Source: an uncultured Rhodocyclaceae bacterium (lineage in GTDB: Bacteria > Pseudomonadota > Gammaproteobacteria > Burkholderiales > Rhodocyclaceae). From it: DNA of 64,000 nucleotides. Shown here piece after piece: positions 431 to 62,519 of this stretch. Each line of letters starts with the position of its first letter. Within the stretch, counting starts at the first letter, position 1. Position numbers and translations under genes: made by a program. Under the pieces are notes generated by a model. That model had not been told where the DNA came from and made no database searches. It saw only the letters and a program-made list of their open reading frames with translations. Location: the NCBI GenBank assembly GCA_907163225.1, contig OU015322.1:1054001-1118000 (forward strand). The letters run 5' to 3'.

Positions 431-460
431 CTGCGGTCAACCCGAATTTTTGATTAAAAC
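431..460 (-). repeat. GGTTGACC dispersed motif, copy 1
   Basis: Reads AATTCGGGTTGACCGCAGAA on the minus strand, preceded by a T/A-rich stretch. It starts 3 bp after the stop codon of the transglutaminase gene. Weaker than most copies in the CCGG part. Confidence 0.6.
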
Positions 461-3400
461 CGCCGCAAGTCTAGCGTAAACGGGTGCTCGGCGCTGATCT
501 CCGGCGCCCTGACCTGCATCTTGCCCGGCGTGTGGCCAAAGCGGAAGAAGCGGGCGAGACGACGACTTTCAGCCTCGAAGGCATTGACCGGGAAGGTATC
601 GAAACTGCGCCCGCCCGGATGCGCGACATGGTACTGGCAACCGCCCAGCGAACGCTGCATCCAGGTATCGACGATGTCGAAAACCAGCGGCGCATGGACG
701 CCAATGGTCGGATGCAGGCAGGATGCCGGTTGCCAGGCGCGGTAGCGCACGCCGGCGACGAATTCGCCGTTGGTACCGGTGTTCTGCAGCGGCACCGGAA
801 CGCCATTGCAGGTCAGCACGTAACGGTCGGGCGCCATGCCCTTGATGCGGACCTGGACGCGCTCGACCGAGGAGTCGACGTAGCGCACCGTGCCGCCACC
901 GCCGCCCTCCTCACCCATGACGTGCCAGGGCTCGAGTGCATGGCGCAGTTCGAACTCCATGCCCTTGACGGCGAAATCGCCATATTTCGGGAAACGGAAT
1001 TCGAAGTGCGGGGCGAACCATTCGGCCTTGAAGGCGAAGCCGGCTTCGGCCATTTCCTGCATGACGTCCTTGAAATCCTGCTCGGCGTAGAACGGCAGCA
1101 TGAAGCGGTCGTGCAGCTCGGTGCCCCAGCGCGCCAGGCGGGCCGGCTCGTAAGGCTGCTCCCAGAAACGGGCGATCATGGCGCGCAACAGCAATTGCTG
1201 GGCGAGCGACATGCGGGCATGCGGCGGCATTTCGAAGGCGCGCAACTCAAGCAGGCCAAGGCGACCGGTCGGGCCGTCCGGTGAGTAGAGCTTGTCGATG
1301 CAGAACTCGGAACGGTGAGTGTTGCCGGTGACGTCGGTGAGCAGGTTGCGCAGGATGCGGTCGATCAGCCATGGCTGAACAACGCCGCCCGGCTGCGGAA
1401 TCTGCTTGAAGGCGATTTCGAGCTCGTAGAGGCTGTCGTTGCGTGCCTCATCGACGCGCGGCGCCTGACTGGTCGGGCCGATGAACAGGCCGGAGAACAG
1501 GTAGGACAGGCTCGGATGATTGTGCCAGTAGGCGATCAGGCTCTTGAGCAGATCGGGGCGACGGAGGAAAGGCGAATCGTTGGGCGTGGCGCCGCCGAGG
1601 ACGAAGTGGTTGCCGCCGCCGGTGCCGGTGTGGCGCCCGTCGACCATGAACTTTTCAGTAGTCAGGCGCGAGTAGTGGGCCGCCTCGTAGAGGTGGGTGG
1701 TCTGGTCGACCAGCTGGTCCCAGCTACGTGCCGGATGGACATTGACCTCGATGACGCCGGGGTCGGGCGTGACGCTGAAATGCGTCAGGCGCGGGTCGGA
1801 CGGTGGCGTATAGCCTTCCATAATGACCGGCATCTTCATCTCTTCGGCCGTTGCTTCAACGGCGGCAACGATTTCCAGATAATCGTCGAGCTTTTCGGTT
1901 GGCGGCATGAAGACGTAGAGCCGGCCGTTGCGCGGCTCGGCGCACATGGCCATGCGAGTGATCCAGCCGGCCGATTCCTTGAAGCGCGGCATGGTGTCGG
2001 TCGGCTTTTCCCAGGCGCGAAGCTTGCCGTCGCCAGACTCGCCGCCGGCGGCGCCGAGGCTACCCAAATGGCGGCGCTGCATCTGCGGCTCGCGGGCACC
2101 GACCTCGCCGCTCACGCGGGCACGCAGGGCGGCCCAGCTGGCCAGCGGATCGGTAGCGGTTTCGGCATCGGGCGGATTGAGGTAGGGGTAGTCGCTGGTC
2201 GCCGTCCATGGCTGTGAATCGTAGGGCAAACGGTAGCCCATGGCCGAATCGCCGGGGAACAGATAGCAACGCTCGGAACGCAGGAACCACGGGCCGGTCT
2301 GCCACTGGTTCCAGACGTTCTTCATAATCGGCAGCACCGAGCCAACGGTGTAGGTCATGCCCTGGGTGAACACCTTCATCAGGCGCTCGCGCTCCAGCGC
2401 ATCATCGACACGCGAATCGAATGGATCGACGTTGCCCGGCAGGCGGCGCTCGCGCCACATGTAGTAGTAAACGTCCTCGAAGGCCGGGAAGACGTAGTCG
2501 GAGGTCATGCCGAGGCGTTCGGCGACACGCTTGAGGAAACGCTGGGCGTGTTCGGCCGTGGCACCGTAATCGATGCTTTCGTTGGCATACAGCTCGGGCG
2601 CATTCCAGATCGGCTCGCCGTCCTTGCGCCAGAAGCAGTTCAGCGACCAGCGCGGGAGTTGTTCGCCGGGATACCACTTGCCCTGCCCGAAGTGCATGAG
2701 GCCGTTCGGGGCGTATTTGCTGCGCAGGCGATGGAAGATATCGGCGGCGAAAATGCGCTTCGTGGGGCCGAGCGCGGCGGTATTCCATTCGGCGCCATCC
2801 GGGTCGTCGACGGCAACGAAGGTCGGCTCGCCGCCTTGTGTCAGGCGCACGTCGAGCTTGCCGAGGGTGCCGTCGATCTGGTGGCCGAGGTTTTCGATCT
2901 CGCTCCACTGTTCATCGGTGTAGGGCTTGGTGACGCGCGGCGCTTCCCAGATGCGGGTGACCTGCATGTGGTGCTCGAACTCGGTTTCGCACTCGTCGAG
3001 GCCGCCGGTGACCGGCGCGGCGGAACCCGGTTCCGGCGTGCAGGCGAGCGGGATGTGGCCTTCGCCGGCGAACAGGCCGGAGGTCGGGTCGAGACCAATC
3101 CAGCCGGCGCCCGGCAGATAGACTTCAGCCCAGGCGTGCAGGTCGGTGAAGTCGGCTTCGGGGCCGGACGGGCCATCCAGAGATTTCACGTCTGCGGTCA
3201 ACTGGATTAAATAGCCAGAAACGAAACGAGCCGCCAGGCCGAGGTGGCGCAGCACCTGCACCAGCAGCCAGGCCGAGTCGCGGCAGGAGCCGGAACGCTT
3301 GGTCAGCGTCTCTTCCGGCGTCTGGACGCCCGGTTCCATGCGGATGGTGTAGCGGATGGCCTTTTGCAGGTCGGCGTTGAGGGCGACGAGGAAATCGACG

Positions 3401-3822
3401 CTGCGTACCGGCTTGCGTGAAATGCCGGCCATGTATTTCTTGAGTTCCGGCGTTTCCGGCAGCTTGTGCAGGTAGGGCGTCAGTTCGTGGCGTTCCCATG
3501 CCTCGTAGGCGAAGGGAATCTTCTCGGCGTGCGGCTCGAGGAAAAAGTCAAAGGGGTTGATGACCGACATTTCGGCCACCATGTCGACCTCGATGCTGAA
3601 TTCGCGGGTCTTTTCCGGGAAGACCAGGCGGGCCAGGTAGTTACCCTGCGGGTCCTGCTGCCAGTTCACGAAATGCGTTTCCGGCCCGATCTTGAGCGAG
3701 TAGGAAAGAATGCGCGTTCGCGAATGCGGGCAGGGGCGCAAGCGAATGACCTGCGGCCCGAGATTGATCAGGCGATCGTAGTTGTAACGGGTAACGTGAT
3801 TCAGCGCGACATGGATCGACAC
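454..3822 (-). CDS. Transglutaminase-like protein with C-terminal DUF2126 domain
   Basis: A 1122-residue protein. Residues 1-100 match the bacterial transglutaminase N-terminal region. The transglutaminase-like core follows with the catalytic triad visible as Cys180 (RSGSCRDSAW), His229 (DLHAW) and Asp245 (GLDPTSG). Residues from about 300 to the end form the long DUF2126 region. The family is predicted to act as a peptidase or amidase, or transglutaminase, and is usually found with circularly permuted ATP-grasp and alpha-E proteins, as here. The start is a GTG at 3822 with GGAG nine bases upstream. Upstream there is a sigma-54 promoter and an NtrC-like site. No signal peptide is visible, so it is probably cytoplasmic. 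The actual substrate is unknown. Confidence 0.9.
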   Translation of the reverse strand: MSIHVALNHVTRYNYDRLINLGPQVIRLRPCPHSRTRILSYSLKIGPETHFVNWQQDPQGNYLARLVFPEKTREFSIEVDMVAEMSVINPFDFFLEPHAEKIPFAYEAWERHELTPYLHKLPETPELKKYMAGISRKPVRSVDFLVALNADLQKAIRYTIRMEPGVQTPEETLTKRSGSCRDSAWLLVQVLRHLGLAARFVSGYLIQLTADVKSLDGPSGPEADFTDLHAWAEVYLPGAGWIGLDPTSGLFAGEGHIPLACTPEPGSAAPVTGGLDECETEFEHHMQVTRIWEAPRVTKPYTDEQWSEIENLGHQIDGTLGKLDVRLTQGGEPTFVAVDDPDGAEWNTAALGPTKRIFAADIFHRLRSKYAPNGLMHFGQGKWYPGEQLPRWSLNCFWRKDGEPIWNAPELYANESIDYGATAEHAQRFLKRVAERLGMTSDYVFPAFEDVYYYMWRERRLPGNVDPFDSRVDDALERERLMKVFTQGMTYTVGSVLPIMKNVWNQWQTGPWFLRSERCYLFPGDSAMGYRLPYDSQPWTATSDYPYLNPPDAETATDPLASWAALRARVSGEVGAREPQMQRRHLGSLGAAGGESGDGKLRAWEKPTDTMPRFKESAGWITRMAMCAEPRNGRLYVFMPPTEKLDDYLEIVAAVEATAEEMKMPVIMEGYTPPSDPRLTHFSVTPDPGVIEVNVHPARSWDQLVDQTTHLYEAAHYSRLTTEKFMVDGRHTGTGGGNHFVLGGATPNDSPFLRRPDLLKSLIAYWHNHPSLSYLFSGLFIGPTSQAPRVDEARNDSLYELEIAFKQIPQPGGVVQPWLIDRILRNLLTDVTGNTHRSEFCIDKLYSPDGPTGRLGLLELRAFEMPPHARMSLAQQLLLRAMIARFWEQPYEPARLARWGTELHDRFMLPFYAEQDFKDVMQEMAEAGFAFKAEWFAPHFEFRFPKYGDFAVKGMEFELRHALEPWHVMGEEGGGGGTVRYVDSSVERVQVRIKGMAPDRYVLTCNGVPVPLQNTGTNGEFVAGVRYRAWQPASCLHPTIGVHAPLVFDIVDTWMQRSLGGCQYHVAHPGGRSFDTFPVNAFEAESRRLARFFRFGHTPGKMQVRAPEISAEHPFTLDLRRF
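3190..3222 (-). repeat. GGTTGACC dispersed motif, copy 2 (inside transglutaminase gene)
   Basis: On the minus strand it reads TTTCTGGCTATTTAATCCAG followed by TTGACCGCAGA. It is in the sense strand of the host gene and encodes GYLIQLTAD, a stretch that is normally conserved in the family. Confidence 0.65.
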
Positions 3823-5340: not shown

Positions 5341-5386
5341 AAGCCGACGAGATTCTGGCGAAGCGGGCATCTGAACGACTATTTAC

Positions 5387-5420
5387 AAATTTGGCCCGAT
5401 TTTCCGGTTGACCGCAGCAA
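5387..5420 (+). repeat. GGTTGACC dispersed motif, copy 3
   Basis: Reads ATTTGGCCCGATTTTCCGG then TTGACCGCAGCAA. It lies in the divergent region between the TonB-like gene and the cytochrome c' gene. Confidence 0.8.
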
Positions 5421-5489: not shown

Positions 5490-5972
5490 ATGCGCCAGTT
5501 TTTGAAATTTCGCCGTTTTTTACTGTTGACCGTAGGGCCAGCCGTTGCCGCTATCGTCGTAGCAACGTTTGCCGGCTGCGGCGAAGTTGAAGACACGCGC
5601 CCGGGGCAGCCGGTGAAGCAGCGGCAAATGGCGTTCAAGGAGATGGTCAAGGCGTTCGAGCCAATGGGCGTGATACTGCGCAAGGGTAGCTACAACGCCG
5701 ACAAATTCCTGCCGCTGGCCGAAGCACTCGTCGCCAAGCGCGATGGGCCGTGGCCGCATTTCGGGCCGGACACCAACTACCCGCCAACCAAGGCCACCGC
5801 CGAAGTCTGGAAGCAGCCGGAAGCCTTCACGAAGGACAAGCAGACCTTCATCGCCGCCACCGACGCCCTGCTCGCCGCCGCGCAGAGCAAGGACAAGGCC
5901 GCCGTGGAGAAGACCTACGACGCCGTCCATGAAGCCTGCAAGACCTGCCACAAGCAGTTCAAGGAACGCTGA
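5490..5972 (+). CDS. Cytochrome c' (class II cytochrome c) lipoprotein
   Basis: A 160-residue protein with a basic N-terminus, a hydrophobic segment and a probable lipobox (TFAGC, Cys30), so it is likely anchored in the periplasm. The body is mostly alpha-helical and the haem c site CKTCH is near the C-terminus (Cys150, Cys153, His154), where class II cytochromes carry it. It probably binds NO or transfers electrons; the exact role is not shown. It is followed 18 bp later by an FAD-dependent oxidoreductase on the same strand. Copy 4 of the dispersed motif lies inside the signal-sequence coding region. Confidence 0.88.
   Translation: MRQFLKFRRFLLLTVGPAVAAIVVATFAGCGEVEDTRPGQPVKQRQMAFKEMVKAFEPMGVILRKGSYNADKFLPLAEALVAKRDGPWPHFGPDTNYPPTKATAEVWKQPEAFTKDKQTFIAATDALLAAAQSKDKAAVEKTYDAVHEACKTCHKQFKER
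5507..5537 (+). repeat. GGTTGACC dispersed motif, copy 4 (inside cytochrome c' gene)
   Basis: Reads ATTTCGCCGTTTTTTACTG then TTGACCGTAGGG. It is in the sense strand and encodes part of the hydrophobic signal segment (RRFLLLTVG). Confidence 0.65.
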
Positions 5973-8048: not shown

Positions 8049-9263
8049 TCAGGAAAATTGCCCGGCCACCCAGCCCGACGACCAGGCCCACTGGAAGTTG
8101 TAGCCGCCCAGCCAGCCTGTCACGTCGACGACTTCGCCGATGAAGTAGAGGCCGGGCGCCGCCTTGGCTTCCATGGTTTTTGACGAGAGCGCGTCGGTCG
8201 ATACGCCACCAAGCGTGACTTCGGCTTTGGCGAAGCCGAGGGTGCCGGACGGCATGAGGGGCCAGGCGTTGAGTTGGCTGGCGATCAGGTCGAGGTCGCG
8301 TCGGCCGAGTTCGCTGATCGGGCGGGTCACGAACTTTTCGCCGCCAAGCAGCGCGCACCATTCGTGGGCGAAGCGCCGGGGCAGGCGTTCGGCGAGCAGG
8401 TTGGGCAGGTGTACGCGGCCTTGCCGGTGCGCTTCGAGCCATGTTCCTGCATCGGTACCCGGCAGCAGGTCGAGGGCGACGGGTTGCTTTTTGCCGCTGC
8501 GGTATTCCTGCATCTGCCAGTAGCTGGAGATTTGCAGGATGGCCGGGCCAGAGAGGCCGCGGTGGGTGATCAGCACGTTTTCGCGGAACTGAGCATCGTC
8601 AAACTGAGCGACGGCGTCGAGCGTTGATCCGGCCAGTGGCTTGATCGGTTCGAGCACATCGGGCGCCAGGGCGAGCGGAACGAGGGCCGGCCGGGGCGGG
8701 ACGACGGAAATGCCGAACTGCTCGGCCAGTCGGTAGCCGAACGGGCTGGCGCCGATTTTCGGGATGGCCAGGCCGCCGGTGGCGACGACCAGGGACTGGC
8801 ATGAAAATTGGCCTTTTTCCGTGTTGACCGCAAAACGCCTGTCGGCTTCGCCCGGCTGGCGTTCGATGTGCCGCACGGCACAAGGAAAAGCCCACTGGAC
8901 GCCAACTTCCTCGCAGGCATCGCGGAGCATGTCGATGATGTCCTGGGCTGATTCGTCGCAGAAGAGCTGGCCGTGCTCGCGCTCGTGGTAAGGAATACGC
9001 CGCTTGTCCATCATCGCAATGAAATCGAACTGCGTGAAGCGGGCGAGAGCCGATCGGCAGAAGTGCGGGTTCTGCGAGAGGAAGTTGTCGGCGCTGACGG
9101 TGCGATTGGTGAAGTTGCAGCGCCCGCCACCCGAGACGCGGATGCGTTCGCCGAGCGTTTCGGCGTGATCGACGAGCAGCACGCGCCGGCCACGCGCCCC
9201 GGCCTGGGCCGCACACATCATGCCGGCCGCGCCGGCGCCGATGACGATGGTGTCGAAATGCAT
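8049..9263 (-). CDS. BaiN/HI0933-family NAD(P)/FAD-dependent oxidoreductase
   Basis: A 404-residue flavoprotein. The FAD motif IVIGAGAAGMMCA lies at residues 6-18 and the family hallmark RVSGGGRCNFTN at 42-53. The C-terminal GLYFIGEVVDVTGWLGGYNFQWAWSS segment (split here by description only) is the second family signature. The length is normal. The family includes flavoproteins of unknown physiological substrate. It is monocistronic, with convergent or unrelated neighbours. Copy 5 of the dispersed motif is inside the gene. Confidence 0.9.
   Translation of the reverse strand: MHFDTIVIGAGAAGMMCAAQAGARGRRVLLVDHAETLGERIRVSGGGRCNFTNRTVSADNFLSQNPHFCRSALARFTQFDFIAMMDKRRIPYHEREHGQLFCDESAQDIIDMLRDACEEVGVQWAFPCAVRHIERQPGEADRRFAVNTEKGQFSCQSLVVATGGLAIPKIGASPFGYRLAEQFGISVVPPRPALVPLALAPDVLEPIKPLAGSTLDAVAQFDDAQFRENVLITHRGLSGPAILQISSYWQMQEYRSGKKQPVALDLLPGTDAGTWLEAHRQGRVHLPNLLAERLPRRFAHEWCALLGGEKFVTRPISELGRRDLDLIASQLNAWPLMPSGTLGFAKAEVTLGGVSTDALSSKTMEAKAAPGLYFIGEVVDVTGWLGGYNFQWAWSSGWVAGQFS
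8804..8835 (+). repeat. GGTTGACC dispersed motif, copy 5 (inside BaiN-family gene)
   Basis: Reads AAAATTGGCCTTTTTCCG then TGTTGACCGCAAAA. It is antisense to the host gene, where it encodes FAVNTEKGQF. Confidence 0.75.
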
Positions 9264-13289: not shown

Positions 13290-13833
13290 GGGGTTCCGCC
13301 TTGCGGGCGGGCGTACTTTCTTTTGCTTCGCCAAAAGAAAGTAGCCAAAGAAAAGGCGACCCCTGGATCGGTGCCGGCTACGCCGGTTCCCTGTGCTACT
13401 CGGTGCTGGCGGGGGCTGCGGAACTCGGGCTTCGCCCTCAGACAGTCCTCGCCCTTTTTCCGCCAGCCCCTGCGTTGCTCGGCACCTCTCAAGGGGCCCG
13501 GTGAAACGACCCGGAGTTGAGCTTGGTTGCCTGAATGACACGTTTTATTTTTGGTTGTTTTTCCCGGTTGACCGTGGAAATCCGTTTTTGATGGATTGCT
13601 GCTCGAGCCCGGACGCTTTTGGGGCCCCCGTGGAAGGCGCTGAGCAACGCAGGAAGGCCGGGGGCTTTCGGCTTGCCTTGTCTGAGCCGCAGGCGAGTTT
13701 TGGCAAGCCGCCCGGCCTGCCGAGTAGCGCAAGGAACCGGCAACGCCGGCGCCGCCCTCGGGGTCGCCTTTTCTTTGGCTACTTTCTTTTGGCGAAGCAA
13801 AAGAAAGTACGCCCGCCCGCAAGGCGGAACCCC
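13290..13833. repeat. Large inverted-repeat element A (about 544 bp)
   Basis: The outer 72 bases at each end are perfect inverted copies: the left arm begins GGGTTCCGCCTTGCGGGCGG and the right arm ends with its complement. Each arm contains its own 11-bp hairpin (ACTTTCTTTTG / CAAAAGAAAGT). Inner parts are also inverted but diverged. The GGTTGACC motif sits at the exact centre. It fills the 637-bp gap between the MFS and chalcone-isomerase-like genes. Open frames through it (peptides such as RQKKVAKEKATP) are non-coding by-products. Element B at 62 kb is the second copy. Similar arm sequences are, to my knowledge, common in proteobacterial genomes. Confidence 0.9.
13547..13580 (+). repeat. 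GGTTGACC dispersed motif, copy 6 (centre of element A)
   Basis: Reads ATTTTTGGTTGTTTTTCCCG then GTTGACCGTGGAAA. Its midpoint is within 3 bp of the midpoint of element A. Confidence 0.85.
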
Positions 13834-13881: not shown

Positions 13882-14481
13882 TCACAAACGCCTCAAAAGC
13901 GCCGCCCGCAGCCCCGGCGCACTGGTCTTCGCATCCAGCCAAATGCCAAAAAACCATTTTGCGAAATCGCCATCGGCAACCTCTCCGACCAAACGGCCGT
14001 TGAAATAAAACCGCGCCACCCCGGGCTCGTACTGGCCGATGATGAAATCGCCCTCCTTCACGTTCGGGAAGATCCGCGTCATCTGCTCGCCCCAGCGTTT
14101 CAGAGCCGCCTCGTCCGCCCCCAGCGCCCGCATTTCCTTGACGCTGGCGTCGGCAATGGCGGCGCCAGCGAGCGTCCGCTTGTAATCGAGGCGCAGGGCG
14201 AGCGGTGGGCGTTGCGGATCGTCTCCTGCCCACAGTGTGGCTTCATAAACGAGAAAACCATAACGGCGAAACTCGCCATTGCCCCAGCGTTTGAGGCCAG
14301 CCGTCGGGTCGGTGTTGGCGAAGGCAGCGAACGGGGCCGCGGCCAACGCCAACACGAGCCGACGGCGACCACCGGAGGCCGGTTCGTTTTTGGCTGTTTT
14401 TTCCGGTTGACCGTGGAACTCGCTGTCGCGAACGCCAGGCGCCACCAGATCAACGATGCGTGAGTTCAAATTGGACGACAT
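13882..14481 (-). CDS. Chalcone-isomerase-like protein with probable Tat-type signal
   Basis: The mature part resembles the bacterial chalcone isomerase-like family: GFLVYEATLWAGDD, LRLDYKRTLAGAAIADASV, GDFIIGQYEPG and FYFNGRLVGEV. A signal sequence GGRRRLVLALAAAPFAAFA with twin arginines precedes it. The ATG at 14481 overlaps the end of the cfa-like gene by 32 bp and would give a long leader of about 33 residues before the signal. Copy 7 of the dispersed motif lies inside that leader. A GTG closer to the signal is another possible start. These proteins bind fatty acids rather than flavonoids in most bacteria. It is a member of the light-response lipid operon. Confidence 0.75.
   Translation of the reverse strand: MSSNLNSRIVDLVAPGVRDSEFHGQPEKTAKNEPASGGRRRLVLALAAAPFAAFANTDPTAGLKRWGNGEFRRYGFLVYEATLWAGDDPQRPPLALRLDYKRTLAGAAIADASVKEMRALGADEAALKRWGEQMTRIFPNVKEGDFIIGQYEPGVARFYFNGRLVGEVADGDFAKWFFGIWLDAKTSAPGLRAALLRRL
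14386..14418 (+). repeat. GGTTGACC dispersed motif, copy 7 (leader of chalcone-isomerase-like gene)
   Basis: Reads GTTTTTGGCTGTTTTTTCCG then GTTGACCGTGGAA. This is one of the closest matches to the full consensus. It is antisense to the gene and encodes EFHGQPEKTAKN just before the signal peptide. Confidence 0.9.
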
Positions 14482-15631: not shown

Positions 15632-16389
15632 TTGGTTGATTCCCGGAGGGGTTGAGAGACGTGGGCGCCCCGGAAGGGCACCCCTTTCAGCCAGAGTTTC
15701 AAGGCTTGCCAATGGATGCGGAACATCACACCGGCGGTAAGGAAAGGCATTTTCATGAAGGCACCAAGCAGCGCAGCGGTCGACCAGGCGCGCGGTTTGC
15801 CTGAGATGGACGTGAGCAGCAGTTCGCCCTCGGCATCGTCGTAGTCGATACGGGCCAGCGGTACCGGGCGATCCAGATGGAAGCGGAAGCGGTAACCTCC
15901 GTCAATTTCGTTGAACGGTGAGACGTGGAATTCCTTGACCGCGCGCAGCTCTTCAGCGTTTTGCAAAGGCGTGCCATCGGCGTGGTGCAGCAAGTAACTG
16001 TGCCGACCGCCAAAGGTGTTATTGACCTCAGCGAGCACGGCAATCAGTGCGCCATCGGTGTTGTGGCAGAACCAGAAGCTGACAGGATTGAAGACAAAGC
16101 CCATCACGCGCGGAAAACACTGCAGGGTAATCTCGCCATCGTCTGCCAGGCCATGCTGGCGCAACTGCGCCTGTATCCACGGCAACAAGGGGCTGCCGTC
16201 GCGGGCGCCGTGGTCCTTGGTGCGGAAACTGAGCAGGTTGCTGCGGTCAACCGAAAAAATAAGGCAATTTGCCAAGGCCGGATTGTGCACCGGCAACTGA
16301 ATGTAAAAAACCGGATAGACGAAAGCATTGACCACTGGCCGAAGCCTGCGATGCATCACGTTGCCGAGGAAAATGCGGGGCTGGTTCAT
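15628..16389 (-). CDS. DUF1365 family protein
   Basis: A 253-residue protein starting MNQPRIFLGNVMHRRLRP, the classic DUF1365 N-terminus, followed by the FSVDRSNLLSF...DHG block and GFVFNPVSFWFCHN and VNNTFGGRHSYLL motifs. It lies 7 bp after the flavoprotein gene and overlaps the cfa-like gene by 4 bp. DUF1365 proteins almost always occur with an amine-oxidase-like flavoprotein and a cfa-like gene. The biochemical role is unknown. Copy 8 of the dispersed motif overlaps the conserved FSVDRSNLL codons. Confidence 0.92.
   Translation of the reverse strand: MNQPRIFLGNVMHRRLRPVVNAFVYPVFYIQLPVHNPALANCLIFSVDRSNLLSFRTKDHGARDGSPLLPWIQAQLRQHGLADDGEITLQCFPRVMGFVFNPVSFWFCHNTDGALIAVLAEVNNTFGGRHSYLLHHADGTPLQNAEELRAVKEFHVSPFNEIDGGYRFRFHLDRPVPLARIDYDDAEGELLLTSISGKPRAWSTAALLGAFMKMPFLTAGVMFRIHWQALKLWLKGVPFRGAHVSQPLRESTK
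16238..16270 (-). repeat. GGTTGACC dispersed motif, copy 8 (inside DUF1365 gene)
   Basis: On the minus strand it reads AAATTGCCTTATTTTTTCGG then TTGACCGCAGCAA. It is in the sense strand and coincides with a conserved protein block. Confidence 0.75.
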
Positions 16390-20521: not shown

Positions 20522-21469
20522 CTAGGCGGCTTGGTCCATCGGCATGAGGAAATCCTTGCTGATCCCGTTCCCGAGCAGATAAATGCGATCCATGAAGTCG
20601 GTCAGCCACTCGTGCAGGCCGTGCTCCAGAATATCCTCGATACGCCCGTAACGAAGCTGGGCGTTCAACATGCCGCCTTGGCGCTGTGTTTCACCAGAAT
20701 TGCTGTTGGCGATGAGATCCAGAATCTTGGCGACGCTGTTCAGACAAAAATGCAGCGAGCGCGGCATGTCCCGGTTGAAAATCAACAACTCAGCCACCCG
20801 CTCCGGGGTGATTACGTCGCGGTAAACCTTGCGATAAACCTCGAAGGCAGAAACTGAACGGAGCAGCGCACCCCATTCGTAAAAATCGGTTGCGCCTTCG
20901 TCACCGTTCGGACGCAGCACGTGATATTTGACGTCGAGAATACGTGCCGTGTTGTCGGCCCGTTCTAGTAGCGTACCCAGGCGAATGAACTGATAGGCGT
21001 CATCCTGCAGCAAGGTGCCCAGTGTGGTGCCGCGAGTTAACGAGGAGCGCATTTTGACCCACTCGAAATACTCGCCTATGCCCGCATTGAAAAGCTGATC
21101 AAAGCTCTTTTCACGGGCCTCCAGCCAAGTGCAATTCAGCGTTTCCCACATTTCTGTGGTCAGCGTGCCGCGCACGGCGTGGGCATTTTCACGGGCAAGA
21201 CGCAAGCAGCTATGGATTGACGCAAAATTATCCGAGTCACTGACCATGAATTTCAGGACATTTTCCCCGTTGACCGTGGAATACTTGGCCGCAAAGGATT
21301 CTTCCAGACTGTTCAGGGCAATGATGGCGGCCCAGCTCTGATTGATGGCGTCCAGCGATTGTGGCACCAGCGACATTTGCCAAGTGACGTCCAGCAAGCG
21401 GGCAAGGTTCTCGGCACGCTCAATGTAGCGAGACATCCAGAACAGGTGATCGGCAGTTCGACTCAACAT
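20522..21469 (-). CDS. Alpha-E domain protein (DUF403)
   Basis: A 315-residue, all-helical protein. It begins MLSRTADHLFWMSRYIERAE, the alpha-E family signature, and carries DNTARILDVKYH and DMPRSLHFCL later. The start is 3 bp after the stop of the ATP-grasp gene, so they form one operon. Alpha-E proteins are predicted partners of circularly permuted ATP-grasp ligases, perhaps binding the product or a peptide. No transglutaminase gene follows here, unlike the usual order. Copy 9 of the dispersed motif is inside the gene. Confidence 0.92.
   Translation of the reverse strand: MLSRTADHLFWMSRYIERAENLARLLDVTWQMSLVPQSLDAINQSWAAIIALNSLEESFAAKYSTVNGENVLKFMVSDSDNFASIHSCLRLARENAHAVRGTLTTEMWETLNCTWLEAREKSFDQLFNAGIGEYFEWVKMRSSLTRGTTLGTLLQDDAYQFIRLGTLLERADNTARILDVKYHVLRPNGDEGATDFYEWGALLRSVSAFEVYRKVYRDVITPERVAELLIFNRDMPRSLHFCLNSVAKILDLIANSNSGETQRQGGMLNAQLRYGRIEDILEHGLHEWLTDFMDRIYLLGNGISKDFLMPMDQAA
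21249..21282 (+). repeat. GGTTGACC dispersed motif, copy 9 (inside alpha-E gene)
   Basis: Reads AATTTCAGGACATTTTCCCC then GTTGACCGTGGAAT. It is antisense to the gene, which reads STVNGENVLKF there. Confidence 0.8.
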
Positions 21470-36875: not shown

Positions 36876-36911
36876 TCAATACGCCCACTCAGCCGACTCG
36901 CGGAGCACGAT

Positions 36912-40904: not shown

Positions 40905-40962
40905 CAAGGCGTGGCGCTTGTCCAGATATCCCCGAAGAGGAGAGGCTATTCGCATTGCAAGT

Positions 40963-43460: not shown

Positions 43461-46251
43461 GCGCTCGCGCCTCGCCTGCGCCGTGCAGGTTACTGACGCA
43501 ACGGCCGCACAGGCCCGGATGCTCGGCATGGGCGCCAACATCGTCGCGCACGTGCCAGCAGCGTTCGCATTTGGCGTGTTCGAGCGGCGTGGCGATGACT
43601 TGTTCGGCGTCGTCGCGGATTGCTACGGTCGACGAGCAAATCAGCACAAATTTCAAATCATCGCCGAGCGAGGCCAGGGCATCGAATTTCTCGCCAGCAC
43701 AGTGAATTTCAACCGCCGCCTGCAGGGCCGAGCCGATCTTGCCGGCTTCGCGCTGGGCTTCGAGGGCCTTGGTGACGTCGGCGCGGGCCGTACGGATCAG
43801 CGCCCACTTGGCGAGCAGATCGCCCTCACCGGCCTGCGCCGGCAACTCATGCCATTGCTGGAACATGACGGAATCGTCAGCCTTGCCGGTCAGCACCTGC
43901 CAGACTTCTTCGGCCGTGAAGGCGGTGATTGGCGCCAGCAGGCGAACGAAGGCCTGCGTGATGTGCCACAGCGCCGACTGGGCGGAACGACGGGCCACGG
44001 ACTTCGGTGCCGTCGTGTACAAGCGGTCCTTCAGGATATCGAGGTAGAAACCGCCGAGGTCTTCCGAACAGAAAGTTTGCAGCGCCTGAACGACGCGGTG
44101 GAATTCGTACTTGTCGTAGTCGGCGCGGCTGCCATTCTGCAGTTCGCGCGTAAAAGCCAGCGCGTAGCGGTCGATTTCCAGCCATTGCTCAACCGGCAGC
44201 ATGTCGGCGTTGGCGTCGAAATCGGAGACGTTGGCCAACAGGAAGCGTAGCGTGTTGCGGATGCGGCGATAACCTTCGACGACGCGCTTGAGGATTTCGT
44301 CGGAAATCGTCAGCTCACCGGAGTAGTCGGTCGAAGCAGTCCACAAGCGCAGGATGTCGGCGCCCATCTTGTCTGACACCTGCTGCGGCGCGATGACATT
44401 TCCCTTGGATTTCGACATCTTGTGGCCCTTGCCGTCGACCACGAAGCCGTGCGTCAGTAGGGCCTTGTAGGGTGCGCGGCCGTCGATGGCGCAACCGGAA
44501 AGGAGCGAGGACTGGAACCAGCCGCGATGCTGGTCGGAGCCTTCAAGATAGAGGTCCGCAGGATAGGTGTGTTCTGCGGCGTGCGAACCGCGCATGACGT
44601 GCCAGTGCGTCGTCCCGGAGTCAAACCAGACGTCCAGGGTGTCCTTCATCTTGATGTACTGGTCGGCCTCCGCGCCGAGCAACTCGGCAGCGTCAAGGCT
44701 GAACCAGGCTTCGATGCCGGCTTTCTCGACGCGCTGGGCAACCTGTTCGATCAGCTCCGCAGTACGAGGATGCGGCTTGCCGGTTTCCTTGTGCAGGAAG
44801 AACGGAATCGGCACGCCCCAGTTACGCTGGCGCGACACGCACCAGTCCGGCCGGGTCTTCATCATGCCTTCCAGGCGGGCACGGCCCCAGGCCGGGAAGA
44901 ACTGTGTTTCATCAACGGCACGTTCGGCGATCCAGCGCAGGGTCGAGGCATCTTCGCTGGTCTTGTGATCCATGCCGATGAACCATTGCGTCGTGGCGCG
45001 GAAAATGATCGGCGTCTTGTGGCGCCAGCAGTGCGGGTAGCTGTGTTTGATTTTCTCGTTTTTTAACAGTCGACCGTGGGATTCGAGTTCCTGCAGCACC
45101 AGCGGGTTGGCCTCCCACACCGTCTTGCCGGCCAGTTCGCCGACCGACAGCGCCGGCGTCGTGCTGATGAAACGGCCGTCGTTGCCGACCGGGTTGTTGA
45201 CCGGCAGGCCGTATTTCTTGCCGATGTTGTAGTCGTCCACGCCATGTGCCGGCGCCGTGTGCACCAGGCCGGTGCCGGCCTCGGTTGTAACATGCGTGCC
45301 GCAGATGATCGCCACGTCACGCTGCTGAAACGGATGCTTGAGCAAGATCTGGTCGAGCTTTTCGCCTTTGCAGGAAGCGACGATTTCGGCCTCCAGACCG
45401 TAACGTTGCAGGCTGGCCTCAGCCAGTTCATGGACGAGGATCAGCGAGCCCTTGGCCGTTTCGTACAGATCGTATTGCAACTCCGGATGCACGCTGACCG
45501 CCTCGTTAGCCGGCAGCGTCCATGGCGTCGTCGTCCAGATCACAGCGAAGGCCGGGCCGTTCAGGTGCGTCAGGCCGAAAGCGTTGGCCAATTTCTCGGC
45601 ATGGTTTTCATGCACTTCGAAAGCCACGTCGATGGCCGGTGAGTTCTTGTCTTCGTACTCGACTTCGGCCTCAGCCAGGGCCGAACCGCAATCGAGACAC
45701 CAATTGACCGGCTTCAGGCCCTGATAAAGATAGCCCTGCTCCAGAATCTTGCCCAGCGCACGGATTTCGCCGGCCTCGGCCGCGAAATTCATGGTCAGGT
45801 AAGGATTGCCCCAATCGCCCAGCACGCCAAGTCGGATGAAGTCCTTCTTCTGGCGCTCGACCTGCTCGGCCGCGTAGGCACGGGACAACTCACGCACCTT
45901 GTCGGCCGGAATGGCCTTGCCGTGCAGCTTTTCAATCTGGTGTTCGATGGGCAAACCGTGGCAGTCCCAGCCCGGCACGTAGGGCGCATCGAAGCCTGAC
46001 AGGGTTTTCGAGCGAACAATAATGTCCTTCAAAACCTTGTTGACCGCATGACCAATGTGAATGTCGCCGTTGGCGTAGGGCGGGCCATCGTGCAGCACGA
46101 AACGCGGGCGGCCGGCGCTGATCTCGCGAATGCGCTGGTAGAGCTGCTTTTCCTGCCACTGGGCGACCCATTGCGGCTCGCGCTTGGGCAGATCGCCGCG
46201 CATCGGGAAGGCCGTATCCGGCAGGTTCAGGGTGTCTTTGTAATCAGCCAT
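43453..46251 (-). CDS. ileS: Isoleucyl-tRNA synthetase
   Basis: A 932-residue class I aaRS. It has the HIGH motif ([11 protein letters not shown]), the KMSKS motif ([10 protein letters not shown]), the large editing domain and a C-terminal zinc site ([10 protein letters not shown] and LCGRCVSN). Upstream ribF and downstream lspA form the standard operon. Copy 11 of the dispersed motif is inside the gene. Confidence 0.97.
45046..45082 (+). repeat. GGTTGACC dispersed motif, copy 11 (inside ileS)
   Basis: Reads TTTGATTTTCTCGTTTTTTA then ACAGTCGACCGTGGGAT. It is antisense and encodes [12 protein letters not shown], a conserved region before the HYPH motif. One base differs in the core (TCGACC). 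Confidence 0.6.
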
Positions 46252-48615: not shown

Positions 48616-48646
48616 AAGCCAGCTCGCCACACCGCCGGAGCATTTC

Positions 48647-48679
48647 ATTTTTTGGCCCTATTTTCCGGTTGACCGTGGA
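48647..48679 (+). repeat. GGTTGACC dispersed motif, copy 12
   Basis: Reads ATTTTTTGGCCCTATTTTCC then GGTTGACCGTGGA. It is in the gap between nudC and the bacterioferritin genes. Confidence 0.88.
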
Positions 48680-48822
48680 TGCTGGAACTCACCGCCCGAT
48701 CGGCGGTCACTGCTGCATGGCTGGATGGAAAAGCTTCTTTTCTGCGCCTAAAATGAGCGCTCCGGCAAGCCAGCCGCTTTTTGCCAGCCAGCCCTCGTTT
48801 CCAACCCACTCTGGAGAACGCC

Positions 48823-50335: not shown

Positions 50336-51382
50336 CTAGATTACGTCGATGCCCGGCTCGCCTTCGACCACTTCGCCAATCACCGAAACATGTGAAAAAC
50401 CTTGCTGCAGGAAGAGTGAAAGTACTTCCGTGACGGTGTCCGGCGTACAGGAAACGAGCAGGCCGCCGGATGTCTGCGGATCGGAAACGAGCGTTTTTGC
50501 GGCTTTTTCCAGGTTGACCGCAAGATTCACGCTGGCCCCGTAACTGGCCCAGTTGCGGGCGGAAGCACCGGTCATGAAGCCGGCTTCGACGAATTCACGA
50601 GCCCGGGGCAGCAGGGGCAGATCGGCGTATTTCACCGTGGCACGCAAGCCGCTACCCTTGCAAACTTCGAGCAGGTGCCCGGCCAGTCCGAAACCGGTGA
50701 CGTCGGTGACGGCATGCACGCCGTCGAGACAGGCCAGCATAGGCCCCGGCGTATTCAGTTGCGTCGTGGTCTCGACCATCGCTTCGTAGTCGCTGGCAAG
50801 GAGTTGATCTTTTTTCAGCGCGGCGCTGTACACGCCGACGCCAAGCTGCTTGCCGAGGATCAGCTTGTCACCCGGTTTGGCCCCCGAGTTGCGCTTGAGG
50901 TGCGCCGGATTGACGATGCCAATGGCGACCAGCCCGTAAATCGGCTCGACAGAATCGATGGTATGACCGCCGGCAATCGGGATGCAGGCGGCTCGACAAA
51001 CCGACTCGCCGCCCTGCAGGATTTTGCCGATGGTTTCCAGCGGCAGCGTGTTGACCGGCATGCCGACGATGGCCAGCGCGAAGAGCGGCGTGCCGCCCAT
51101 GGCGTAGACATCGGAGATGGCGTTGGTCGCGGCAATGCGGCCAAAGTCATAGGGGTCATCGACGATCGGCATGAAGAAATCCGTCGTCGCGACAATCGCC
51201 TGCTGCGGGTTTATCTGGTAGACCGCAGCATCGTCGCAGGTCTCGGTGCCGACCAGCAATTGCGGCGGAATGATGCCGGACGGCGCGCCGGCGAGAATCT
51301 GTTGGAGGACAGCGGGGGCAATTTTGCAGCCACAGCCGCCGCCATGGGAAAGCTGGGTCAATCTGATTTTTTCTTCGGGCAC
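50336..51382 (-). CDS. selD: Selenide, water dikinase
   Basis: A 348-residue enzyme that makes selenophosphate. Catalytic Cys17 is in SHGGGCGCK (Cys, not Sec), and the C-terminal DPQTSGGLLVSC is typical. It feeds selenoprotein synthesis or selenouridine in tRNA. No selA, selB or selU is in the window. Copy 13 of the dispersed motif lies inside. Confidence 0.96.
   Translation of the reverse strand: MPEEKIRLTQLSHGGGCGCKIAPAVLQQILAGAPSGIIPPQLLVGTETCDDAAVYQINPQQAIVATTDFFMPIVDDPYDFGRIAATNAISDVYAMGGTPLFALAIVGMPVNTLPLETIGKILQGGESVCRAACIPIAGGHTIDSVEPIYGLVAIGIVNPAHLKRNSGAKPGDKLILGKQLGVGVYSAALKKDQLLASDYEAMVETTTQLNTPGPMLACLDGVHAVTDVTGFGLAGHLLEVCKGSGLRATVKYADLPLLPRAREFVEAGFMTGASARNWASYGASVNLAVNLEKAAKTLVSDPQTSGGLLVSCTPDTVTEVLSLFLQQGFSHVSVIGEVVEGEPGIDVI
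50493..50525 (+). repeat. GGTTGACC dispersed motif, copy 13 (inside selD)
   Basis: Reads GTTTTTGCGGCTTTTTCCAG then GTTGACCGCAAGA. It is antisense and encodes LAVNLEKAAKT. Confidence 0.82.
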
Positions 51383-51778: not shown

Positions 51779-54004
51779 TCAGCGGCCAGGACGCCAACGC
51801 TTCAATAACAGTGAGTTCGAGACCACCGAAACCGAACTCATCGCCATGGCCGCCCCCGCCACCACCGGGTTGAGCCAACCCAGTGCCGCCAGCGGGATTC
51901 CCAACACGTTGTAGAAAAACGCGAAGAAAAGGTTCTGCCGGATTTTGCCCAAGGTGACAGCCGACAGGTCGATGGCATCGAAAACGCCGTTCAGGTCACC
52001 CCGAATCAGTGTCACATCCGCCACCTCGACCGCGGCATCCGAACCGACACCGATGGCAAAACTGACATCGGCAGCGGCCAAGGCCGGCGCATCGTTGACG
52101 CCATCACCCACCATCGCCACCAGACCGCCACCCACTTTCAATTCACTGATGGCTGCAGCCTTGTCACCGGGCAAAATGCCAGCGCGGAATTCATCGATAC
52201 CGGCCTCTGCGGCGATTGCCGCGGCCGTTGCCGCATTGTCACCGGTCAGCATGATGACCCGAATGCCGCGCTCACGCAGGCGTTTGACCGCTTCGCGCGA
52301 CGTCGGTCGCAGGGCGTCGGCAATGGCAATGAGGGCTAGCACGGCATTGCCATCGGCCAGCACGACAACCGTCTTCCCGGCCCGCTGCAACTCGCTGACG
52401 GCGGGATCGGCATCCAGCCCGAGCCAGCTTGGCGAACCGAGGCGCAACATCCGTCCGGCGACTTCACCCGCCACACCCTGCCCGGTAAACGATTGGAAAT
52501 TTGTCACTTTTTTCCGGTTGACCGCAGGATCGGTGGTGGCTTCCATGCTCGCGGAACTCGCCGAAACAATGGCCCTGGCCAGTGGATGCTCCGAGTGATC
52601 CTCAAGCGCCGCGGCCAGACTGAGTGCTTCTTCGCGCGAAGTTCCGCGTGCGATCACGTCGGTCACCTGCGGCGCCCCGCAAGTCAGCGTGCCGGTTTTA
52701 TCCAGCGCCAGCACCGCAATCTTCTCGGCTCGCTCAAGCGCTTCGGCATTCTTGACCAGAATGCCGGCCCTGGCCCCCTGCCCGGTACCAACCATGATCG
52801 CGGTCGGCGTCGCCAAGCCCAGGGCGCACGGGCAGGCAATGACCAGCACGGCCACCGCATTCACCAAGGCCACGGCGAACTGTCCCGAATACCACCACCA
52901 GCCGGCAAAGGTAAGGAGCGCAATGACGCAAACCGTCGGCACGAAAATCGCCGAAATCCGGTCAGCCAGCCGTTGCACCGGCGCCTTCGAGCCCTGAGCC
53001 TCACCCACCATGCGAATAATGCCGGCGAGCAACGTGTGCTCGCCAACACCGGTTGCCCGGCAACGCATCGCGCCTTGACCGTTGGCCGTCGCGGCAAACA
53101 CCGGGTCGCCGCTGCGCTTGCCCACCGGCATGCTTTCTCCCGTCAGCATCGCCTCATTGACGCTGGACTCACCATCAAGTACCTCGCCATCCACGGGCAC
53201 GTTTTCACCCGGGCGAACCAGAAAGACATCGCCCGGCATCAGTGCCTCGACCGGCATTTCAATCCATTGGCCATCGCGTTCAACCCGCGCCATCTTCGGC
53301 TGCAAACGAATCAACGACTCAATGGCATCGGATGTCTTGGCCTTGGCTCGTGCTTCCAGCAACTTGCCGAGCAGAACGAGTGTGATCACCGCCGCGCCAC
53401 CTTCGAAATAAACATGCTGATCAAGACCGAACAAGGTCACCGCGGCTGAAAAACCCCAGGCCATGCTGGTGCCCAGCGCCACCAGCACATCCATGTTGGC
53501 ACCGCCGCCCTGCAGCGACTTGTAGGCGCCATCGTAGAAACGCCAGCCGATCCAGAACTGCACCGGCGTCGCCAGCGCCAGTTGTAGCCAGCGCGGCAAT
53601 TCATTCTGGTGACCGTGCTCGCCGAACATGAACAGCATCTGACCAACCAGCGGCAAGGTCAGCACCACCGCAATCCAGAAACGACGGATTTCACGGTGGT
53701 AGACCTGTAATTTCTCGGCCTTTTCACGTGCGCGCGTCTGGCCATCAACCACGGCGGCAGTGAATCCAGCCTTGGCCACAGCCGCCACCACGGCCGCCTC
53801 ATCAGCCTCCGCCGACAAACGAACGCGCGCCCGCTCTGCCGCCAGATTGACATTGGCCTGCATGCCGGCCTGCCGATTCAGCACTTTTTCAAGCCGAGCC
53901 GAACAGGCGGCACAGGTCATGCCGCCAATGGCAAATTCGACCACCCGGCTGCTAGCAGCCTCGCTCATCTCAGCCTCAACATGATTTTCAGGCGTACTTT
54001 CCAA
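51779..54004 (-). CDS. Copper-translocating P1B-type ATPase
   Basis: A 741-residue ATPase. It has one N-terminal HMA domain (Cys31, Cys34), the CPC transport motif (391-393), the phosphorylation site DKTGT (435-439), SEHPLARAI (471-479) and [15 protein letters not shown]. The N-terminal cysteine motif of FixI/CcoI-type pumps is absent, so CopA-like export is favoured, but the neighbours (TauE/SafE-like, hemN, fnr) resemble those around cbb3-oxidase assembly genes. Copy 14 of the motif inserts AVNRKK between conserved blocks. Confidence 0.92.
52498..52529 (+). repeat. GGTTGACC dispersed motif, copy 14 (inside copper ATPase)
   Basis: Reads AATTTGTCACTTTTTTCCGG then TTGACCGCAGGA. It is antisense and encodes [11 protein letters not shown] at residues 493-503, a poorly conserved loop. 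Confidence 0.88.
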
Positions 54005-58785: not shown

Positions 58786-58956
58786 TGAATTGCTCCTCGA
58801 TCATCTTTTGTGTGAATGAACCCCGAAGCGTGTCCCGCTTCGTACGAATCTCCCCTCTCACATCCCTGAGGGCAGCGTTCAGGCAAAACAATTGCGAAGC
58901 GCGTGCCAGCCTCACAAAATCCGCCGAAAAATTCCCGCGAGGCCTCTTGCCTCGTT

Positions 58957-58990
58957 GATTTCAGGGATTTTTTCCAGTTGACCGCAGCAA
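58957..58990 (+). repeat. GGTTGACC dispersed motif, copy 15
   Basis: Reads GATTTCAGGGATTTTTTCCA then GTTGACCGCAGCAA. It is about 170 bp upstream of the porin start. Confidence 0.82.
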
Positions 58991-61248: not shown

Positions 61249-61282
61249 GTTTTTTGTCTTATTCAGGTTGATACGAAATTTC

Positions 61283-61315
61283 GTTTTTGGCCGAATTTAC
61301 CGGTTGACCGCGGAA
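61283..61315 (+). repeat. GGTTGACC dispersed motif, copy 16
   Basis: Reads GTTTTTGGCCGAATTTACCG then GTTGACCGCGGAA. It is 35 bp before the TonB receptor start codon. Confidence 0.88.
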
Positions 61316-61377
61316 GGCGACTTCCACCTGATTATCGCCAAATGAAAAAATGGTGCGACAAGGCAATCACCAATTGA

Positions 61378-61398: not shown

Positions 61399-61405
61399 GA
61401 CAGCC

Positions 61406-61439
61406 TATTTTGATCGCTTTTTCCGGTTGACCGTGGGAA
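61406..61439 (+). repeat. GGTTGACC dispersed motif, copy 17
   Basis: Reads TATTTTGATCGCTTTTTCCG then GTTGACCGTGGGAA. It follows copy 16 by 90 bp, the closest pair of intergenic copies. Confidence 0.88.
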
Positions 61440-61946: not shown

Positions 61947-61989
61947 GACGGCGGCCGGCTCCAACCGGAATGCAGGCTTGATTGAGCTT

Positions 61990-62519
61990 GGGGTTCCGCC
62001 TTGCTGGCGGGCGTACTTTCTTTTGCTTCGCCAAAAGAAAGTAGCCAAAGAAAAGGCGACCCCGGGGGCGGCGCCGGCTATGCCGGTTCCTTGCGCTACT
62101 CGGAACGCCGGGCGGCTGGCTAAACTCGCCTGCGGCTCAAACAACGCCAGCCGACTGCCCCCGGCCTTCCTGCGTTGCTCAGCGCCTTCCACGGGGACCC
62201 GAAAGGCGTCCCGACTCAGCCATCGTGCCAAAGAAAACGGGTTCCACGGTCAACCGGGAAAAAGGCCAAAAAATGAAACCCCAAGCTTGCCCACGGACGT
62301 TTTTCCGGGCCCCTTGCGAGGTGCCGAGCAACGCAGGAAGGCCGGGGGCCTTCGGCGAGGACTGTCTGAGGGGCGTAGCCCCGAGTTCCGCAGCCGCCCG
62401 GCGTTCCGAGTAGCGCAGGGAACCGGCGTAGCCGGCACCGAACCAGGGTCGCCTTCTTTTTGCTTACTTTTTCTTGGCGAAGCAAGAAAAAGTGAGACGC
62501 CCTGCAAGGGCGGAACCCC
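61990..62519. repeat. Large inverted-repeat element B (about 530 bp)
   Basis: Second copy of the element at 13.3 kb. The left arm (GGGTTCCGCCTTGCTGGCGG onwards) is nearly identical to that of A. The right arm has diverged (ACTTTTTCTTGGCGAAGCAA), with compensating changes that keep its own hairpin. The centre holds copy 18 of the motif in the opposite orientation to A. No real gene is seen in the 657 bp between the FKBP and FrnE-like genes. Confidence 0.88.
62242..62274 (-). repeat. GGTTGACC dispersed motif, copy 18 (centre of element B)
   Basis: On the minus strand it reads ATTTTTTGGCCTTTTTCCCG then GTTGACCGTGGAA. Its midpoint is about 4 bp from the midpoint of element B. Confidence 0.88.

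What the first reader, a model, noticed from the sequence alone, without database searches (positions are those of the whole stretch)
431..62274. Dispersed 32-bp motif with GGTTGACC core, 18 copies in 64 kb
A motif of roughly TTTTTGGCYG, then TTTTTCCGGTTGACCGTGGA, recurs at 431, 3190, 5387, 5507, 8804, 13547, 14386, 16238, 21249, 27561, 45046, 48647, 50493, 52498, 58957, 61283, 61406 and 62242. The right half is a near-dyad (CGGT-TG-ACCG), the left half is T-rich. It does not match any terminator, REP or promoter I know. Density is about one per 3.5 kb. It could be a chromosome-architecture or DNA-uptake type signal, or a binding site for a nucleoid protein.
Basis: seen in the sequence. Interest (0 to 1): 0.78.

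Follow-up and report, generated by a model that had tools for sequence, protein, structure and literature searches.

The report
Putative DNA-uptake tags in Azonexus genomes
A 38-letter DNA tag repeated about a thousand times along this bacterium's chromosome looks like the "take up my own kind's DNA" labels known so far from two other bacterial families, but uptake itself has not been tested.

Summary
All 18 listed sites are real; a matrix trained without the window finds 23 there (control 0.04). The motif is genome-wide: 592 near-exact 16-mers in 3.46 Mb against 3 for the reversed pattern, and 280 matrix sites in an evenly sampled 864 kb (about 1,100 per genome). It is about 38 bp: an oriented GTYGACCG core with A/T-rich blocks one and two helical turns away on one side.

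It behaves unlike a mobile repeat, promoter, terminator or replication-polar signal. 174 of 280 sites lie in genes, strands are balanced, spacing is more regular than chance, and sites arise and decay by substitution in place. Related species carry dialects or lack the motif; sampled genomes of other families lack it.

Best explanation: DNA-uptake signal sequences, like the Pasteurellaceae USS. The reverse complement, TGCGGTCRAC plus two A/T blocks about 11 bp apart, shares GCGGT with it. A 2025 paper names only Pasteurellaceae and Neisseriaceae as having such signals.

Against: uptake is untested, and this genome has no recognisable comEA, although comEC, dprA and a minor-pilin operon are present. 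Main rival: a chromosome-wide nucleoid-protein site.

The parts
428..466 (-). motif copy (28.6 bits), intergenic
   Evidence: held-out matrix
3189..3227 (-). motif copy (33.3 bits), inside gene 454-3822
   Evidence: genic class
5382..5420 (+). motif copy (47.9 bits), intergenic
   Evidence: class
5500..5538 (+). motif copy (40.7 bits), intergenic
   Evidence: class
8798..8836 (+). motif copy (24.7 bits), inside gene 8049-9263
   Evidence: class
13542..13580 (+). motif copy (43.5 bits), intergenic, centre of a 555-bp palindromic element
14381..14419 (+). motif copy (44.4 bits), inside a gene call 13882-14481
   Evidence: class
16238..16276 (-). motif copy (37.7 bits), inside gene 15628-16335
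   Evidence: class
21244..21282 (+). motif copy (35.7 bits), inside gene 20522-21436; identical in G002
27557..27595 (+). motif copy (42.6 bits), between convergent genes
   Evidence: class
   Evidence: class
45044..45082 (+). motif copy (27.0 bits), inside the same synthetase gene
48643..48681 (+). motif copy (40.2 bits), intergenic
   Evidence: class
50488..50526 (+). motif copy (33.6 bits), inside gene 50336-51382
   Evidence: class
52492..52530 (+). motif copy (44.9 bits), inside the P-type ATPase gene
58952..58990 (+). motif copy (38.2 bits), intergenic
   Evidence: class
61278..61316 (+). motif copy (44.7 bits), intergenic
   Evidence: class
61401..61439 (+). motif copy (34.6 bits), intergenic
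   Evidence: class
62241..62279 (-). motif copy (45.9 bits), intergenic, centre of the second palindromic element
33435..33875 (+). type IV minor pilin matching Pfam ComP_DUS (E 1.5e-13); only a candidate for the receptor, not shown to be part of the system
33821..41604 (+). rest of the pilus-tip gene cluster: GspH/FimT-type pilin, PilW, PilY1 and three proteins without Pfam match; context only

Best explanation
The motif is most likely a DNA-uptake signal sequence (a self-DNA tag). Read as 5'-TGCGGTCRAC-cgg-[A/T block]-n5-[AAATTT]-3', it would be bound in one orientation by a surface receptor, probably a minor type IV pilin. The two A/T blocks, one and two helical turns from the core, would help the duplex bend or kink as the retracting pilus draws it in. 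Tagged fragments would then be taken up preferentially and recombined through ComEC and DprA. Because uptake favours tagged alleles, tags accumulate by point mutation plus biased recombination, giving about 1,100 copies at fairly even spacing, and each lineage drifts to its own dialect together with its receptor. Shown here: copy number, anatomy, distribution, in-place evolution, motif-preserving change since divergence, dialects, restriction to the genus among the genomes searched, and presence of comEC, dprA and minor pilins. Inferred: receptor binding, uptake bias, and recombination as the driving process.
For: (1) 592 copies against 3 in the control. (2) 280 sites in 864 kb: 174 genic and 106 intergenic, with 17.6% of the DNA intergenic by my own gene calls; 141/139 by strand. 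(3) Spacing is more regular than random: CV 0.764 against 0.959 +/- 0.054, and 15 pairs under 500 bp against 41.2 +/- 5.4; 0 of 2,000 simulations reach either value. (4) Genic sites are oriented (62 same strand, 112 opposite, p=2e-4) and frame-biased (131 of 174 in one phase); the commonest class (91 of 174) encodes [A/T]V[N/D] in 87. PMC2346458 (abstract seen) reports an orientation bias in reading frames for all uptake sequences it studied. (5) Not insertions: of 69 site-genome pairs with an alignment in the relatives' samples, 50 are gap-free and 2 have gaps of 10 or more in the relative; the two synthetase-gene sites align without gaps in 30 of 30 genomes. (6) Substitutions since the split from three near relatives preserve motif score: mean -3.6 bits against -17.9 for random substitutions of equal number, 17 gap-free homologues at 11 window sites, combined p 2e-16 over the 16 with a mismatch (rows not fully independent). 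(7) Dialects with one shared plan, core plus A/T block two turns away, in 9 of 9 sampled genomes with at least 10 core hits (7 others had fewer). (8) Core counts from background to 1,630 in 76 genomes of the genus; never above 2 in the 198 genomes of the order outside the genus, with a pattern of this dialect. (9) GCGG is the inner core of Pasteurellaceae USS, which also has two A/T-rich segments 3' of the core about 12 bp apart (PMC12616744 introduction, PMC1626085 passages). (10) comEC, dprA and a ComP_DUS-type minor pilin are present in G000.
Against: No uptake or transformation experiment for this genus was seen in the listings searched. G000 has no recognisable ComEA: TIGR00426 finds only an HHH domain below its cut-off in an 834-aa frame, PF12836 at E up to 0.5 finds no separate ComEA-like protein, and neither of two places that hold comEA in a relative has it in G000. 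G003 (76% complete) and G015 (complete, motif-rich) also show none; all 13 other motif-rich genomes, and all 6 lower-count ones (G045, G018, G016, G022, G043, G051), have a separate strong match (for G081 and G024 in long open frames, so gene identity is less sure). So competence genes do not separate motif-rich from motif-poor genomes. Raw identity inside sites is not higher than in flanks (0.826 against 0.817, p=0.48, n=31; the 4 JAAXVL rows are the same genome as G002); only the motif-preserving nature of the changes is. Tags rarely form close pairs as USS and DUS do (2 gaps under 100 bp of 239). Genic sites are not concentrated at gene ends (17 and 13 within 100 bp of the 5' and 3' ends, 18 expected at each), unlike Pasteurellaceae. 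Perfect cores do not outnumber singly mismatched ones in total.
Confidence: 0.66

Rival explanations
1. The motif is the binding site of an abundant sequence-specific nucleoid or chromosome-organising protein, whose specificity drifts between species. Even spacing would serve chromosome packing.
For: Near-palindromic core (GGTTGACC, CGGTCGACCG) and a CA/TG step next to it suggest protein-DNA contact. Even spacing. Missing ComEA in G000 removes an expected uptake component.
Against: Patchy within one genus: core counts from background to 1,630, unlike what is expected of a structural chromosome protein. Strongly asymmetric one-sided A/T blocks. Sites inside genes whose substitutions change codons (inferred from the alignments). 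Close match to USS anatomy. No gene for such a protein was looked for genome-wide or identified.
Confidence: 0.17
2. The tags are relics: an uptake signal that worked in ancestors of this lineage, where competence was lost with comEA, and that is now decaying.
For: No comEA in G000 or its sister G003 (G003 is only 76% complete). PMC1626085 (passages) describes Pasteurellaceae that lost competence genes recently yet keep USS.
Against: Substitutions between G000 and near relatives still preserve the motif. comEC and dprA frames are open.
Confidence: 0.12
3. The motif is an operator of a global transcription factor or a promoter element.
For: TTGACC resembles a -35 hexamer, and T-rich upstream DNA resembles an UP element (recalled).
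Against: 174 of 280 sites lie inside genes with no 5' excess (17 within 100 bp of the start, 18 expected); intergenic sites favour convergent over divergent gaps (32 against 14 for about equal lengths). No -10-like element in the downstream matrix columns.
Confidence: 0.03
4. The motif is a mobile repeat (MITE/REP-like) spread by copying.
For: High copy number. Two copies sit in the centre of a 555-bp palindromic element.
Against: Aligned orthologous places are mostly gap-free (50 of 69; 2 with gaps of 10 or more). Similarity ends at the motif edges.
Confidence: 0.02

Closest known systems
Uptake Signal Sequence (USS) of Pasteurellaceae (Hin type AAGTGCGGT, Apl type ACAAGCGGT)
   Same: GCGGT core (the Apl 10-mer ACAAGCGGTC even shares GCGGTC), two A/T-rich segments 3' of the core about one helical turn apart, both orientations, genic and intergenic, regular spacing, point-mutation origin, clade-specific types (PMC1626085 and PMC7811141 passages, PMC12616744 introduction).
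   Different: Betaproteobacterial genus; core continues as GCGGTCRAC and lacks AAGT/ACAA; A/T blocks about 5 bp further from GCGGT (about +10 and +21 against about +4.5 and +16, my reading of the positions given in PMC1626085); lower density (one per 3.1 kb against about one per kb); few close pairs; uptake not demonstrated.
DNA Uptake Sequence (DUS) of Neisseriaceae
   Same: Thousands of copies, dialects that follow phylogeny, some genomes of the family without any (PMC3630211 passages); a ComP_DUS-family minor pilin is present here.
   Different: DUS is a continuous motif of up to about 13 bases with inner core CTG (PMC12616744 introduction) and no flanking motifs (PMC1626085 passages); no sequence resemblance.
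KOPS, Chi, matS, parS and nucleoid-occlusion sites (recalled)
   Same: Short chromosomal motifs repeated many times.
   Different: No strand polarity by GC skew and no evident single cluster in 40 evenly spaced stretches (1 to 11 sites each; clustering not formally tested against ori or ter); long bipartite motif.

Membership tests
USS/DUS-type DNA-uptake signal | experimentally shown preferential uptake of DNA carrying the motif | not testable with these tools
   needs competent cells; no report seen
USS/DUS-type DNA-uptake signal | hundreds to thousands of near-identical copies, far above chance | tested here: met
   592 against 3 control; 280 in 864 kb
USS/DUS-type DNA-uptake signal | no overall orientation bias; spacing more regular than random | tested here: met
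   141/139; CV 0.764 against 0.959
USS/DUS-type DNA-uptake signal | enriched between genes but many copies inside genes, with orientation bias in reading frames | tested here: met
   106 of 280 intergenic with 17.6% intergenic DNA; 62/112
USS/DUS-type DNA-uptake signal | arises by point mutation, not insertion | tested here: met
USS/DUS-type DNA-uptake signal | dialects congruent with phylogeny | tested here: inconclusive
   TTGACC/T5 dialect in one clade on a 30-genome gene tree, but that clade also holds low-count G045 and high/low motif load (my cut-offs) needs at least 8 changes
USS/DUS-type DNA-uptake signal | perfect core copies outnumber singly mismatched ones | tested here: not met
   G000 9-mers in the 800-kb sample: 112 and 106 perfect against 358 and 497 singly mismatched in total, of which 106 and 112 are the other allowed letter; the perfect 9-mer is 12-14 times the median variant
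Pasteurellaceae USS | inner core GCGG plus two downstream A/T segments | tested here: met
   TGCGGTCRAC-type core plus A/T blocks in 9 genomes; in G000 and G002 the first G is often A (RCGGT)
Pasteurellaceae USS | nine-base core AAGTGCGGT or ACAAGCGGT in a Pasteurellaceae genome | tested here: not met
   core here is TGCGGTCRAC, in an Azonexaceae genus (inferred); therefore not filed as a Pasteurellaceae USS
competence machinery | ComEC, DprA, type IV pilus minor pilins | tested here: met
competence machinery | ComEA periplasmic DNA receptor | tested here: not met
   not found in G000; a separate strong match in all 13 motif-rich genomes other than G000, G003 and G015

The most novel reading that the evidence does not exclude
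A third family of bacteria with DNA-uptake signals: Azonexus/Dechloromonas evolved a 38-bp oriented tag that, independently or by shared ancestry of the receptor, uses the same GCGGT core and helically phased A/T blocks as the Pasteurellaceae USS. The genus spans species with 1,600 tags, several dialects and species with none, so birth, dialect change and death of an uptake specificity can be followed within one genus, including a lineage that keeps the tag without ComEA.
Probability: 0.58. Interest if true: 0.9.

Novelty: new variant of a known kind. Interest (0 to 1): 0.8.

Why it matters
[quoted passage not shown] A third system in environmental bacteria, with dialects and natural losses inside one genus, would make it testable how uptake specificity starts, why GCGG plus A/T blocks recurs, which pilin reads the tag, and whether the tag persists without ComEA. 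Azonexus (formerly Dechloromonas) includes polyphosphate-accumulating wastewater bacteria (PMC12455942, start of the abstract in the listing), so gene flow in treatment plants could be channelled by these tags (inference).

Tried and rejected
Promoter or operator: rejected on gene-internal placement and no 5' excess. Terminator: the window has no Rfam match at gathering score, and the motif seldom occurs in close pairs (2 gaps under 100 bp of 239). Replication-polar signal: rejected, 77/75 and 64/64 by sign of GC skew (summed by hand). Mobile repeat: disfavoured by gap-free orthologues. A perfectly palindromic variant suspected in G008 (TTTTTGCGGTCGACCGCAAAAA) is not the general form: TGCGGTCGACCGCA occurs 0 times in the G008 sample and 2 times in all samples together. 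Iterated-matrix motif discovery did not converge on a motif in G024, G015, G002 and G031; for G024, G015 and G002 the consensus was instead read from core-anchored alignments. G022, G018, G039, G028 and G016 had fewer than 8 core hits, and G005 9. A first tree used wrong-strand frames for some rows and was rebuilt. First alignments mixed strands and were redone. In the ATPase alignment most rows are not aligned right of GGTTGACC, so only the part up to there is read. Identity inside sites against flanks showed no excess. A receptor that tracks the dialects was not found: ComP_DUS-type pilins occur in 37 of 41 genomes, with and without the motif. Genes were called by my own hexamer script, so genic and intergenic counts are approximate; one search dropped weaker hits within 15 bp of a stronger one. 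One search's 280 sites (22 in the window) come from a matrix trained on all stretches; one search's 23 window sites from one trained without the window. One search counts only site-genome pairs whose alignment reaches 25 bp beyond the site; one search dropped homologues with gaps. Patterns used outside the genus were of this dialect, so a different dialect in another family would have been missed. The literature search that asked for 4 of 5 terms returned nothing and says little.


Full report
Observation. The 16-mer TTTTTCCGGTTGACCG with up to two mismatches has 592 places in the 3,463,890-bp single-contig genome, 3 for the reversed pattern. In 864 kb (window plus 40 evenly spaced 20-kb stretches) a 39-column matrix gives 280 sites above 14 bits, controls 0.33 (Markov) and 1 (reversed matrix), which extrapolates to about 1,100 per genome.

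Anatomy. Columns right of the core carry no matching A/T block, so the near-palindrome GGTTGACC does not make the whole site symmetric.

Distribution. 174 of 280 sites are in genes and 106 between genes, while 17.6% of the DNA is intergenic by my own gene calls; between genes, 32 lie in convergent and 14 in divergent gaps of about equal total length. Strands are balanced, 141/139, also within stretches of negative (77/75) and positive (64/64) GC skew (summed). Spacing is more regular than random (CV 0.764 against 0.959 +/- 0.054; 15 pairs under 500 bp against 41.2 expected; 0 of 2,000 simulations for both). Genic copies lie more often on the antisense strand (112 against 62, p=2e-4) and 131 of 174 share one phase; the largest class (91) encodes [A/T]V[N/D] in 87. 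They are not concentrated at gene ends. Site density by codon typicality shows no clear trend (19.7, 24.5, 32.3 and 21.8 per 100 kb from the least to the most typical quartile).

Evolution. Alignments of the synthetase gene (30 genomes) show both window sites turning into related or unrelated sequence by substitution, without gaps; the site in the P-type ATPase gene (30 genomes) does the same as far as GGTTGACC, beyond which that alignment is not usable. In blastn alignments of relatives' samples, 50 of 69 site-genome pairs are gap-free and 2 have gaps of 10 or more in the relative. Against three near relatives (G002, G003, G012; 17 gap-free homologues at 11 window sites), motif score fell by 3.6 bits on average against 17.9 for random changes of the same number (combined p 2e-16 over the 16 with a mismatch; the rows are not fully independent). 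Plain identity inside sites was not above that of flanks (0.826 against 0.817, p=0.48, n=31, of which the 4 JAAXVL rows belong to the same genome as G002). So sites change freely but towards letters that the motif allows.

Dialects and range. In 80-kb samples of relatives, core-anchored alignments give tGTTGCGGTCGAC...AATTT (G020), T.TTGCGGTCGAC...AATt (G008, G010), gCTGCGGTCGAC...AAaA (G014), CGCGGTCGAC...aATTtc (G015, G019), gcCACGGTCAAC...AAAA...AAATtt (G002) and TGCGGTCGAC...AAtT (G024); G005, G016, G018, G022 and three genomes of other families had under 10 core hits. GTYGACCGCA counts in 76 genomes of the genus run from background (26 in G073) to 1,630 (G081). Of 200 genomes of the order searched with AATTN{16,17}GTYGACCGYRG, G000 and G060 (both of this genus) have 86 and 28 matches, 13 others have 1 or 2 and 185 none. 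With the 16-mer, 16 genomes of other families range from 0 to 12. The G000 matrix finds 0 sites in 80-kb samples of G016, G018, G022, G028, G031 and G039. A scan of named genomes gave 65 stretches, in records titled Azonexus, Dechloromonas, Azonexaceae, Rhodocyclaceae or unplaced Beta-, Gamma- or Proteobacteria. On a 30-genome synthetase tree the TTGACC-T5 dialect (G000, G003, G012, G002) sits in one clade, but that clade also holds low-count G045 (66 of the 16-mer, control 5), and high/low load (my cut-offs) needs at least 8 changes.

Function. These are traits listed for uptake sequences in PMC1626085 (passages read): no significant orientation bias, regular spacing, preference for non-coding DNA with many genic copies, origin by mutation, flanking A/T segments, clade-specific types. 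GCGG is the inner core of the Pasteurellaceae USS (PMC12616744 introduction), crucial for uptake in H. influenzae (PMC7811141 passages). I therefore propose an uptake signal read by a surface pilin. G000 has comEC (188407-189201, 858-aa open frame), dprA, and in the window itself a pilus-tip gene cluster whose first pilin matches ComP_DUS (E 1.5e-13); but that family occurs in 37 of 41 genomes, motif-rich or not, and phmmer shows only general type IV pilin relatives.

Difficulties. G000 lacks a recognisable comEA by two family models and at two places where relatives have it; its sister G003 (76% complete) and motif-rich G015 also show none. All 13 other motif-rich genomes and all 6 lower-count genomes have a match separate from the large 680-960-aa frame that carries the best HHH match in 21 of 22 genomes (some in long open frames, so not all are proven comEA). 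Either competence has just been lost, or another protein serves, or the motif has another role; hence confidence 0.66 and a nucleoid-protein rival at 0.17. I also could not show the excess of perfect over mismatched cores that is typical of USS.

Novelty. Searches for uptake sequences with Rhodocyclales, Rhodocyclaceae, Azonexus, Azonexaceae or Dechloromonas, and for the core letters, showed no report in the rows listed (open-access library only). PMC12616744 (2025; abstract and introduction read) names two families only. If confirmed, this is a third, with its own motif: a new variant of a known kind.

Noticed in passing
window 13285-13839 and 61990-62524; L028 13761-14484: A 555-bp imperfect palindromic element with strongly paired arms, two copies in the window (82% identical in inverted orientation) and a partial relative in L028; both window copies carry an uptake-like motif near the centre.
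   Followed up: partly
window 33435-41604: Type IV pilus-tip cluster (ComP_DUS-like pilin, GspH/FimT, PilW, PilY1) that my hexamer gene finder scored as atypical for this genome, with only one weak motif copy; in G002, G003 and G012 the ComP-like pilin lies about 2 kb from the ileS-like gene against about 10 kb here.
   Followed up: partly
G000:C1:1893000-1906000 (L328) and 1632000-1646000 (L327): Places where relatives (G010, G051) carry comEA; not found here. comEA has different neighbours in those two species.
   Followed up: partly
G019 sample (L159-L162) and 80 kb of the G000 sample: Frequent short tandem units CCCGAA (G019) and CGCCAA (G000) in k-mer counts; origin not looked at.
   Followed up: no
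G081, G008, G010, G086: Genomes with 1,113 to 1,630 copies of GTYGACCGCA, more of this core than the window's genome (623); good organisms for a functional test.
   Followed up: no
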